This document shows, one piece after another, positions 41,288-44,549 of a stretch of 53,001 nt of DNA (position 1 is the first letter of the stretch; every line of letters begins with the position of its first letter). The notes under the pieces are model-generated. The model was not told the origin of the DNA and searched no databases. It worked only from the letters and a program-made list of their open reading frames with translations. Made by a program: the position numbers and the translations under genes. The DNA comes from Parcubacteria group bacterium M6-OD1-3 (GTDB lineage: Bacteria > Patescibacteriota > Minisyncoccia > Moranbacterales > UBA9337), in NCBI GenBank assembly GCA_003056165.1, contig LSNR01000009.1, forward strand, positions 1 through 53,001. Reading direction: 5' to 3'.

Positions 41288-42688
41288 ATGACTTTGAATT
41301 ATTTTAAGAACAAAAAAATAACAGTATTTGGTTTGGGTTTACTGGGCGGTGGTTTGGGCGTGGTTAAATTTTTGGCGAAGCACGGAGCAAAAAAAATTAT
41401 TATTACTGATATAAAAACTGAAAAACAGTTAAAAAAAACTGTAGAAAAATTGAAAGGTTTTAATAATATTGAATTAGTATTAGGTTATCATCGAATTGAA
41501 GATTTTACTAAAGTGGATATGGTTATAAAAAACCCTGGAATTTCTTGGGATAATAAATATATTAAACAAGCTTTGAATAAAAAAATTCCTGTTGAAATGG
41601 ATTCAAGTTTGTTTTTTAAACTTTGCAAAAATAAAATTATTGGCGTAACGGGAACAAAAGGGAAAACTACAATATCTTCAATGACTTTTGATATTTTAAA
41701 ATATGCCAAAAAAAATCCTGTAATGGTTGGAGTAGGGCAAGCATCGGTTTTAGATAAATTGGAAGTACTAAAAAAGAATTCTTTGGTTGTTTTTGAATTG
41801 TCTAGCTGGCGATTATCGGCATTAGGTCGAGCCAAGTTAAGTCCATCCGTTGCTGTTTTTAAAAATATTTTGCCGGACCATTTAAATTATTATAAAGGAA
41901 TGAAAGAGTATTTTAACGACAAAAAGAATATTTTTCAATATCAAAAGCCATCAGATTGGTTGATTGTTAATAGTGATGATGAAAAATTAAAAGAAATGTT
42001 GTTGACTGTTAAATCGCAGATTGTAGAATTTTCTCTTAAAGAACAACGACATGGAAGGTCTGTTTTCTGTAAAGATGGAGCTATTTATATAAATGATGGT
42101 ATTGATGTTAGAAAATTGGTAACTACAGATGAGCTTAAATTGTATTCCAATCATAGCATTGCTAATGTTTTGGCATCAATTGGCGTCGCTTTTGTTTGCG
42201 GTTTGAAGCTGGATGAAATAAAGAAAGCTGTAACAAAAATTAATTTGATAGCACATCGAATGGAATTTGTAGATAAGATAAATGACATTAAATACTATAA
42301 TGATAGCGCAGCGACTATTCCACAAGCGTCTATTGCAGCGATTGAATCTTTCAATAAGCCTGTAATTTTAATTGCCGGTGGGTCAGATAAGAATCTTGAT
42401 TTTTCTGAATTAGGAAGAGTCATTGCTAAGAAAGTAAAAGGGGTTGTTTTTTTGAAAGGAGAGGCCACTGAAAAATTGATTAAAGAAATTAAGAAAAATA
42501 TGCCCGAAAGAGAACATACAAAGTTTGAAATAAAAGACTCTATGCGAAAGGCAGTAGAAGAAGCAACTCGTTGTGCAGAAGCTGGTGATATTATTCTTCT
42601 TTCTCCAGGCTCGGCAAGTTTTGGTGTCTTTGCTAATGAATTTGACCGAGGCGATAGATTTAAAAATGCAGTTAAAAACTTTAAATAA
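41288..42688 (+). CDS. murD: UDP-N-acetylmuramoylalanine--D-glutamate ligase
   Basis: KKITVFGLGLLGGGLGVVKFL, IIGVTGTKGKTTISSM, YYNDSAATIPQASIAAIESFNKPVILIAGGSDKNLDF, LLSPGSASFGVFANEFDRGDRF. Confidence 0.93.
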   Translation: MTLNYFKNKKITVFGLGLLGGGLGVVKFLAKHGAKKIIITDIKTEKQLKKTVEKLKGFNNIELVLGYHRIEDFTKVDMVIKNPGISWDNKYIKQALNKKIPVEMDSSLFFKLCKNKIIGVTGTKGKTTISSMTFDILKYAKKNPVMVGVGQASVLDKLEVLKKNSLVVFELSSWRLSALGRAKLSPSVAVFKNILPDHLNYYKGMKEYFNDKKNIFQYQKPSDWLIVNSDDEKLKEMLLTVKSQIVEFSLKEQRHGRSVFCKDGAIYINDGIDVRKLVTTDELKLYSNHSIANVLASIGVAFVCGLKLDEIKKAVTKINLIAHRMEFVDKINDIKYYNDSAATIPQASIAAIESFNKPVILIAGGSDKNLDFSELGRVIAKKVKGVVFLKGEATEKLIKEIKKNMPEREHTKFEIKDSMRKAVEEATRCAEAGDIILLSPGSASFGVFANEFDRGDRFKNAVKNFK

Positions 42689-42742
42689 ATTTTTTGTTGA
42701 CATAATCAAACAAAATAAATATCTTTGAAAAAAATAAAAAAG

Positions 42743-42776
42743 GGGATAGCGAATTGAATATTCGTTATCCCTCTTT
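42743..42776. terminator. Bidirectional hairpin terminator between murD and the lipoprotein gene
   Basis: GGGATAGCGAATTGAATATTCGTTATCCCTCTTTT with A-run on the 5' side. Confidence 0.75.
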
Positions 42777-42816
42777 TGGTTGAGACCCGCTTTATCTTAT
42801 TGTTGGCGGGATTTTT

Positions 42817-43356
42817 TTATTGAAGTTGCCAACTACCGTTAGCATCTCTGCAGGCGGTAGTGTATGTCTTCTCTCGCCGACCATCGATGATGGCGACGAT
42901 TTCTGCTTTTCGACATACTTTTTCGGGTTGCCGATATCGCTGTTGCTGATATTGGCGACGCTGATATTGTTGCCGTCGATATTGGCGACGATGAGGTTGA
43001 GTTCTCTGGGGCGGTTGATGATAAGATCGCTCCGGAGTTACCCAATACTCATTATGAGTATCAGGGTTGACCCAAGCTTGGGTCAATCCTGATGCTCCTG
43101 TTTCATAGACATTGTTTAATTGTCGTCGGTCGAATTTGTCCATTTCGTTGCCGACGATATAGCCGAGCATAGTGCCGACGGCTATTCCAATGAGAGTGGC
43201 TTCGGTGTTATGACCGATCATCTGTCCGATGAGAGCCCCTCCCACAGCTCCGCCTGCAGTGGTCATTGTTGTTGACAGCCGTTGCATATCTGCACAGGCT
43301 GAAATGAAAAAGATACAGATTGCTATTGCCATAACACAAAAAAGTTTGCTTTTCAT
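42817..43356 (-). CDS. Glycine-zipper (17 kDa surface antigen / RT0821-Lpp0805-like) lipoprotein
   Basis: MKSKLFCVMAIAICIFFISAC lipobox; AGGAVGGALIGQMIGHNTEATLIGIAVGTMLGYIVGNEMD; WVNPDTHNEYWVTPERSY; CRKAEIVAIIDGRREKTYTTACRDANGSWQLQ; SD GGAGGTAAAGG upstream. Confidence 0.85.
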   Translation of the reverse strand: MKSKLFCVMAIAICIFFISACADMQRLSTTMTTAGGAVGGALIGQMIGHNTEATLIGIAVGTMLGYIVGNEMDKFDRRQLNNVYETGASGLTQAWVNPDTHNEYWVTPERSYHQPPQRTQPHRRQYRRQQYQRRQYQQQRYRQPEKVCRKAEIVAIIDGRREKTYTTACRDANGSWQLQ

Positions 43357-43508
43357 TTCCTTTACCTCCATTTTTTTGGCAAGCGAATTAGTTCGCCTGT
43401 CTTTTTTAAATATACTTTGAATCTAACTAATAAATAACTAAAAAGTTATCATATGAGTATAATAGATAAAGCTTAAAAAGTCAATAATTTTAGTAGCAAT
43501 AAATTTTG

Positions 43509-43542
43509 GTAACGTACCATGGTACGTTACTTGGTACGTTAC
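43509..43542. repeat. Palindrome plus third half-site (GGTACGTTAC)
   Basis: GTAACGTACCATGGTACGTTAC (22-bp perfect palindrome) followed by TTGGTACGTTAC. Confidence 0.75.
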
Positions 43543-44050
43543 TAAAAATTGAAAAAGCTTACGGAAAGTTGTGAAAATAAGAAGCGGATAAAAAATGGTT
43601 GTTAAAAAAAATAGGAAAGGATTGATAAATATGTATATAGCGCATATGTTGAAGTTAAGGTCAGCTAAGGGTGCTATTTTTTAGCACCTATTTTTTAAAA
43701 AATAGAATAATACTGAAAATTATCAATCGTTAGTAAAAAATGTGATAAAGTAAAAAACGGAAACAATTAATAAAAAAACAAAGACCACTGGCACAACACT
43801 TTCTATACAAGTAACTTCATTTTATGATATAATTTAAAATAAAACGAAAGAGGAAAAGTTAATTAACTTTAAAATTAAAACAATGAGAAACTCAAAGAAA
43901 AAGCATAAAATATGGCATACAACTGGACGGAAAGCTGTCTTATATAGAAGATTTGTCCATCTATAGGTGAGTTAAATATCTTTGATAAAAAAACCAATTT
44001 AGACAAAGGTAAAAAAATAAAAACACAAACCATAAAACATTAAATTTTTA

Positions 44051-44090
44051 AGGTAATCATTTTCCCACGGCCGTGGGAAAATGATTACCT
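44051..44090. repeat. 40-bp perfect palindrome with no spacer, abutting the tsaE ORF
   Basis: AGGTAATCATTTTCCCACGG|CCGTGGGAAAATGATTACCT. Confidence 0.9.
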
Positions 44091-44549
44091 ATGAATTGTT
44101 GGATGATGAAAAAAATAATAACAAAAAATGCGGAAGAGACTAAGAAATTGGGAATGGGAATTGCCGATAAATTTCAGGGTGGAGAAATTATTTGTTTGGA
44201 AGGTGATTTGGGTGCGGGAAAAACAACTTTTTCTCAAGGACTTTTGCAAGGATTGGGAGCAGAGGGTCCTTATACCAGCCCGACTTTTGTAGTGATGAAG
44301 GAATATAAAACCAAAAGTAGAAATATTTATCATATTGATGCTTACAGAATTAATAAAGAAGATGTTTTGGAACTAGGTTGGGAAGAATTGGTTGCGGATA
44401 AAAGTAATGTTATAATATTGGAGTGGCCGGAAAAAATAAAAAAAATAATTCCCGAAAATTCCCTATGGATAAAATTCCGGCATTTAGATAAAAACAAGAG
44501 AGAAATAATTTATAGACCTTTTGTAAATAAGATTTCAAAGAAAATTTAA
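44091..44549 (+). CDS. tsaE: tRNA threonylcarbamoyladenosine biosynthesis ATPase TsaE (start may be 44103/44106)
   Basis: GEIICLEGDLGAGKTTFSQGLLQGLGAEGPYTSPTFVVMKEY; IIILEWPEKI. Confidence 0.9.
   Translation: MNCWMMKKIITKNAEETKKLGMGIADKFQGGEIICLEGDLGAGKTTFSQGLLQGLGAEGPYTSPTFVVMKEYKTKSRNIYHIDAYRINKEDVLELGWEELVADKSNVIILEWPEKIKKIIPENSLWIKFRHLDKNKREIIYRPFVNKISKKI

What the first reader, a model, noticed from the sequence alone, without database searches (positions are those of the whole stretch)
42817..43372. Proteobacteria-like glycine-zipper lipoprotein in a CPR-like genome
The minus-strand gene encodes a lipoprotein with lipobox FISAC, a glycine-zipper 2TM segment and a C-terminal CRKAEIV...YTTACRDANGSW motif typical of RT0821/Lpp0805-like surface proteins of Gram-negative bacteria. 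It has clearly higher GC than its neighbours. It also has a strong SD (GGAGGTAAAGG), rare elsewhere in the window, and its own terminator. This suggests recent acquisition, possibly from a host or neighbour. Its role in a cell presumed to lack a classical outer membrane would be interesting.
Basis: partly seen in the sequence, partly recalled or inferred. Interest (0 to 1): 0.68.

Follow-up and report, generated by a model that had tools for sequence, protein, structure and literature searches.

The report
Captured Gram-negative lipoprotein in CPR genome
A tiny-genome bacterium that lacks an outer membrane carries an intact surface-lipoprotein gene taken long ago from sulfate-reducer-type Gram-negative bacteria (Desulfobulbales), and it seems to be one of a recurring set of captured exported-protein genes in its group, which could point to the neighbours or hosts these cells live on.

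Summary
The gene is real. The ORF is 42817-43371(-), with its likely start at 43356. It encodes a 179-aa lipoprotein with a lipobox, a glycine zipper and a C-terminal CRxAEI...YTTACRD domain. GC is 0.475 against 0.32 for the genome. All 34 named relatives found are Desulfobulbaceae/Desulfobacterota-type. The family occurs in 204/258 Desulfobulbales genomes but full-length in only 3/131 genomes of the window's own order. The gene falls inside a Desulfobulbaceae clade (98/96 support). It is not a chimera: both neighbours are native, and a 22-bp intergenic palindrome found in ten copies across the genome lies 138 bp upstream of the ORF. The transfer is not recent (best identity about 65%). Donor-invariant residues are 95% kept, so function has probably been maintained. 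The genome has LspA and an Lgt motif but no Omp85, so the protein should end up on the single membrane.

More broadly, high-GC genes in this genome are enriched for GGAGG Shine-Dalgarno sites (12/18 vs 32/615, p=4e-11) and signal peptides (p=0.001). The region upstream of tsaE holds different high-GC exported genes in 13/75 relatives, against 0/77 murD flanks. Transfer is near certain; retention as an envelope protein is likely; its exact role and donor-as-host are inference.

The parts
42817..43356 (-). lipoprotein CDS, 179 aa, likely start ATG at 43356 (first ATG of the ORF at 43371)
   Evidence: alignment start with relatives
43294..43356 (-). signal peptide with lipobox ISA-C (Cys21)
   Evidence: Cys21 invariant in the 24- and 26-sequence alignments
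43141..43263 (-). glycine zipper 2TM segment (aa 32-72), PF05433
   Evidence: E 4.1e-9
42921..43007 (-). Q/R/Y-rich insertion of about 27 aa, absent from aligned relatives, built partly of 15-bp repeats (42945-42994)
   Evidence: alignment; tandem repeat
42817..42921 (-). C-terminal CRKAEI...YTTACRDANGSWQLQ domain (17kDa_Anti_2-like), predicted beta strands
43365..43369 (-). Shine-Dalgarno GGAGG
   Evidence: rarity
43380..43399 (-). short hairpin in the 5' leader (AGGCGAA-CTAA-TTCGCTT)
   Evidence: fold
43456..43484 (-). sigma70-like promoter TTGACT-17-TATACT (10/12)
   Evidence: not unusually strong for this genome
42742..42772 (-). terminator-like hairpin, followed by a T-rich run; a smaller hairpin at 42786-42810
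43509..43530 (.). 22-bp palindrome GTAACGTACCATGGTACGTTAC, a genome-specific intergenic repeat (10 copies on 6 contigs)
41288..42688 (+). native neighbour murD
   Evidence: TIGR01087; 54-69% identical in same-family relatives
44091..44549 (+). native neighbour tsaE
   Evidence: PF02367; best relatives 58-61% identical

Best explanation
The gene is a horizontally acquired Desulfobulbales surface lipoprotein, now a resident single-gene unit of a Patescibacteria-type genome between murD and tsaE. SHOWN: origin inside Desulfobulbaceae, native flanks, intact ORF, kept invariant residues, lipid-processing enzymes present, no Omp85. INFERRED: it is transcribed from its own promoter and translated from its strong SD, exported by Sec, and lipidated and cut by Lgt/LspA. 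With no outer membrane to go to, it stays anchored in the outer leaflet of the single membrane. The glycine zipper packs into that membrane and oligomerises, and the cysteine-containing beta domain faces outward as a structural or protective envelope component. I put transfer at about 0.95, retained function about 0.75, and the membrane-anchored structural role about 0.45.
For: Origin: 34/34 named hits are Desulfobulbaceae/Desulfobacterota-type records; 204/258 Desulfobulbales genomes carry it, against 3/131 full-length in its own order, 0/9 others in its own family, and no further full-length copy in a 384-genome class sample. Tree: all three CPR copies lie inside a 35-row clade (98/96) whose other 32 rows are Desulfobulbales-side sequences. 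Integration: flanking genes native, genome-specific palindrome 138 bp upstream of the ORF. Constraint: 42/44 donor-invariant columns kept against 6/29 of the most variable. Machinery: LspA E 3.7e-22, Lgt motif GRIGNFLNGELYG, no Omp85 while 7 control genomes ring.
Against: No expression data. Part of the 0.67-per-site divergence may predate transfer, so the kept columns may partly reflect selection in an unsampled donor. Only one genome of this genus is held, so retention over time within it cannot be seen. The glycine zipper is poorly modelled (pLDDT 40-55) and the fold search gave nothing significant. LolA/LolCDE were not searched.
Confidence: 0.6

Rival explanations
1. Host-directed surface protein: the cell lives on a Desulfobulbales host and displays a host-type lipoprotein at the contact face, for adhesion, mimicry, or exclusion of or protection from contact attack.
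For: Exact donor group identified; high-GC genes enriched for signal peptides; other exported outliers include M23 and CHAP peptidoglycan-hydrolase domains.
Against: No co-occurrence or microscopy. Two other exported outliers tested are not from Desulfobulbales (0/10 genomes; 0/194), so there is no single-donor pattern.
Confidence: 0.2
2. Neutral passenger: DNA picked up from the environment and not yet lost, with no function.
For: Patchy presence; individual-gene transfers into Patescibacteria are common (PMC12455944).
Against: Intact ORF with promoter, SD and terminator; substitutions concentrated in variable columns; at least two further CPR genomes keep full-length copies.
Confidence: 0.17
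3. Assembly chimera or binning contamination.
For: The genome is a 26-contig draft; GC jumps at the gene.
Against: Native genes on both sides within one 53-kb contig, genome-specific palindrome 138 bp upstream, no donor-like flanks, and the same class of insertions in independent assemblies.
Confidence: 0.02
4. Contact-dependent glycine-zipper toxin (Cdz-like bacteriocin).
For: Surface glycine-zipper proteins can kill on contact (PMC5380434).
Against: Has a lipobox and not a bacteriocin leader; no type I secretion genes beside it; the family is near universal in Desulfobulbales.
Confidence: 0.01

Closest known systems
Desulfobulbales glycine-zipper lipoprotein family (unnamed; PF05433 + PF16998)
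   Same: Full-length homology, 51-65% identity, invariant Cys21, zipper and CR...TACR motif
   Different: Sits in a genome without Omp85; about 27-aa Q/R-rich insertion; lower GC than most donor contigs
Rickettsia 17-kDa antigen / RT0821-Lpp0805 surface lipoproteins
   Same: Lipoprotein plus 2TM glycine zipper plus C-terminal 17kDa_Anti_2-like domain
   Different: Outer-membrane proteins of diderms (established knowledge); the window copy does not itself score to PF16998
SlyB/OsmB-type glycine-zipper lipoproteins of enterobacteria
   Same: Lipid anchor plus zipper; PRK10540 (OsmB) matches weakly, E 0.00039
   Different: Below the curated cut-off; no structural match; working likeness only, SlyB recalled from memory
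Single-gene transfers into Patescibacteria (PMC12455944)
   Same: Isolated genes acquired from other phyla; that survey lists one event from Desulfobacterota
   Different: That text does not mention lipoproteins, nor did I see a signature of strong-SD exported genes described

Membership tests
Desulfobulbales glycine-zipper lipoprotein family | Full-length homology and placement inside the family tree | tested here: met
   profile E 1.7e-68; inside a 98/96 clade
Rickettsia 17-kDa antigen type (PF05433) | Glycine zipper 2TM domain over the curated cut-off | tested here: met
   36.6 bits against 24.2
RT0821/Lpp0805 type (PF16998) | 17kDa_Anti_2 domain | tested here: inconclusive
   21 of 24 family members match, best 4.9e-7; the window copy does not at E<=10
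Bacterial lipoprotein | Signal peptide, lipobox with conserved Cys, and processing enzymes in the genome | tested here: met
Outer-membrane lipoprotein | Outer membrane and its assembly machinery in the cell | tested here: not met
   no Omp85 in the own genome; Lol genes not searched
SlyB-type zipper lipoprotein | Oligomeric zipper ring in the membrane | not testable with these tools
   zipper region of the model below pLDDT 60; no significant fold match
Cdz glycine-zipper bacteriocin | Small leader-peptide bacteriocin beside type I secretion genes | tested here: not met
   lipobox; neighbours are murD and tsaE
TraT surface-exclusion lipoprotein | PF05818 match | tested here: not met
   23 of 24 members match at E<=10 (best 3.3e-4), but not the window copy

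The most novel reading that the evidence does not exclude
Members of this patescibacterial order repeatedly capture exported and lipoprotein genes from diderm neighbours or hosts as strong-SD single-gene units at tolerant sites such as the region upstream of tsaE. Together these would form a swappable, foreign-derived surface coat that records, and perhaps sets, which bacteria each lineage lives on.
Probability: 0.22. Interest if true: 0.82.

Novelty: new variant of a known kind. Interest (0 to 1): 0.57.

Why it matters
Few hosts of patescibacteria are known. A surface gene traceable to one donor order is a concrete, testable host or neighbour lead. The genome-wide signature (high GC, GGAGG SD, signal peptide) gives a simple way to list captured surface genes in other small genomes and ask how cells without an outer membrane use outer-membrane lipoproteins.

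Tried and rejected
Chimera: rejected (native flanks, genome repeat upstream, no donor flanks). Single versus several transfers among the three CPR copies: unresolved; they are never one clade in 200 bootstraps, but the AU test does not reject it (p 0.39). Special promoter strength: rejected, score 10 is reached or passed by 66/301 native leader genes. One donor for all foreign genes: not supported. Fold and PDB sequence searches: nothing significant. Rfam: nothing near gathering. Empty site: none found, since relatives have other genes after murD and other genes before tsaE, so the murD-tsaE junction is itself a rearrangement.

Full report
WHAT IS THERE. The minus-strand ORF 42817-43371 is a genuine gene. 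The SD GGAGG overlaps the first ATG, so translation most likely starts at 43356, giving 179 aa. It has a lipobox with Cys21, a glycine zipper (PF05433, 36.6 bits against a cut-off of 24.2) and a C-terminal domain of the 17kDa_Anti_2 type, seen in 21 of 24 family members though not in this copy. GC is 0.475 and GC3 0.42, against ORF means of 0.32 and 0.25 over almost the whole genome (812,713 of 817,765 bases read). A promoter-like site, leader hairpin, SD and terminator-like hairpin make it a self-contained unit, but the promoter score is ordinary for this genome.

WHERE IT CAME FROM. A scan of 84,980 species genomes with six peptide patterns gave 34 relatives, all Desulfobulbaceae or Desulfobacterota-type records (a few carry loose labels such as Deltaproteobacteria, Proteobacteria or 'bacterium'). 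In Desulfobulbales 204 of 258 genomes have it. In the window's order 3 of 131 have a full-length copy: G000, G034 and G039, in different gene contexts. None of the nine other same-family genomes has it, and a class-wide sample of 384 genomes adds only zipper-level matches. The maximum-likelihood tree puts all three inside a 35-row clade (98/96) whose other rows are Desulfobulbales-side sequences. One or several entries into CPR genomes cannot be decided (AU p 0.39). The nearest relative is 65% identical over 147 columns, so the transfer is not recent or the true donor is unsampled.

IS IT REALLY IN THIS GENOME. The neighbours are native: murD is 54-69% identical in same-family relatives and tsaE 58-61% in its best relatives. 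A 22-bp palindrome, GTAACGTACCATGGTACGTTAC, ends 138 bp before the ORF and recurs ten times on six contigs, never inside a long ORF. Similarity to donors stops within the coding region. Relatives have other genes after murD and before tsaE, so this junction arose by rearrangement and no empty site is available.

IS IT KEPT. Of 44 columns at least 98% conserved in donors, 42 are the same here, against 6 of 29 in the least conserved class; the G039 and G034 copies behave alike. That fits purifying selection, with the caveat that some divergence may predate transfer. A Q/R-rich insertion of about 27 aa with 15-bp repeats is private to this copy.

HOW IT MOST LIKELY WORKS. The genome has LspA (E 3.7e-22) and an Lgt signature but no Omp85 family member. 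So the protein can be lipidated and cut, but has no outer membrane to travel to. I infer that it stays on the outer leaflet of the single membrane, with the zipper packed in the bilayer and the beta domain outside, as an envelope component. The structure model is confident only for roughly residues 71-112 and 145-179 and has no significant fold match, so the biochemical role stays open. A host-facing role is the main rival.

THE WIDER PATTERN (found here, exploratory). Among ORFs of at least 120 aa, those with GC of 0.40 or more carry GGAGG SDs in 12/18 cases against 32/615 (p=4e-11) and signal peptides in 7/18 against 58/615 (p=0.001). They include an exported protein between thrS and recA, a lipoprotein beside gyrA, a phage-family lipoprotein between miaB and miaA, and an M23 peptidase. 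Some high-GC ORFs are native core genes (for example alaS), and two exported ones are not from Desulfobulbales as far as tested. Upstream of tsaE, 13 of 75 relatives hold a small exported gene at least 0.05 richer in GC than the locus, often zipper-like and usually with a strong SD. None occurs within 1.5 kb in 77 murD flanks (p=6e-5), and 5/76 downstream of tsaE (p=0.048). The test was chosen after seeing examples, and murD lies in a conserved block, so this may mark an insertion-tolerant boundary and not a specific hotspot. The signal-peptide and start calls are home-made heuristics. In G023, G067 and G034 an OmpA-type zipper lipoprotein lies just upstream of secA, suggesting that such captures can be inherited.

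LIMITS. Search tools hide the names of the own genome and its relatives, so 'Patescibacteria' rests on size (0.82 Mb at 94% completeness), relatives of 0.6-1.4 Mb and lack of Omp85. Literature search covered open papers only; none found describes this.

Noticed in passing
L205-L284 and window 42817-44090: Region upstream of tsaE carries different high-GC exported or zipper genes in 13/75 relatives against 0/77 murD flanks; post hoc test.
   Followed up: partly
L137:8243-8662 (own genome C23:27743-28162): Single phage-family lipoprotein gene (PF25682 / phrog_478, annotated as recombination directionality factor) between miaB and miaA, GC 0.48, strong SD.
   Followed up: partly
window 43509-43530; 10 copies on 6 contigs: Genome-specific intergenic palindrome GTAACGTACCATGGTACGTTAC with partial extra units.
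   Followed up: partly
window 44051-44090: Long perfect inverted repeat ends right before the tsaE ATG; the motif recurs on C10 and C26, and C26:1795-2110 is a partial copy of the tsaE 5' region.
   Followed up: no
L071:3940-4599, L070:3260-3997, L072:10167-10841: OmpA-type glycine-zipper lipoprotein followed by small exported genes just upstream of secA in three genomes of one CPR family.
   Followed up: partly
L108:383-2260 (own genome C19): Methyl-accepting chemotaxis protein, GC 0.53, at the very end of a contig; odd for this genome, possibly a chimeric end.
   Followed up: no
L120:3307-4215 (own genome C14:22807-23715): High-GC exported protein between thrS and recA, followed by a mini-lipoprotein reading frame of about 44 aa; absent from 194 Desulfobulbales genomes.
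   Followed up: partly
L093:975-2414 and L117:2138-4135: Exported M23 peptidase and CHAP-domain proteins with raised GC: candidate peptidoglycan hydrolases.
   Followed up: no
L067:7880-8027 and window 42742-42810: The G039 and window copies both end in two successive hairpins before a T-run, which may be a shared cassette end.
   Followed up: no
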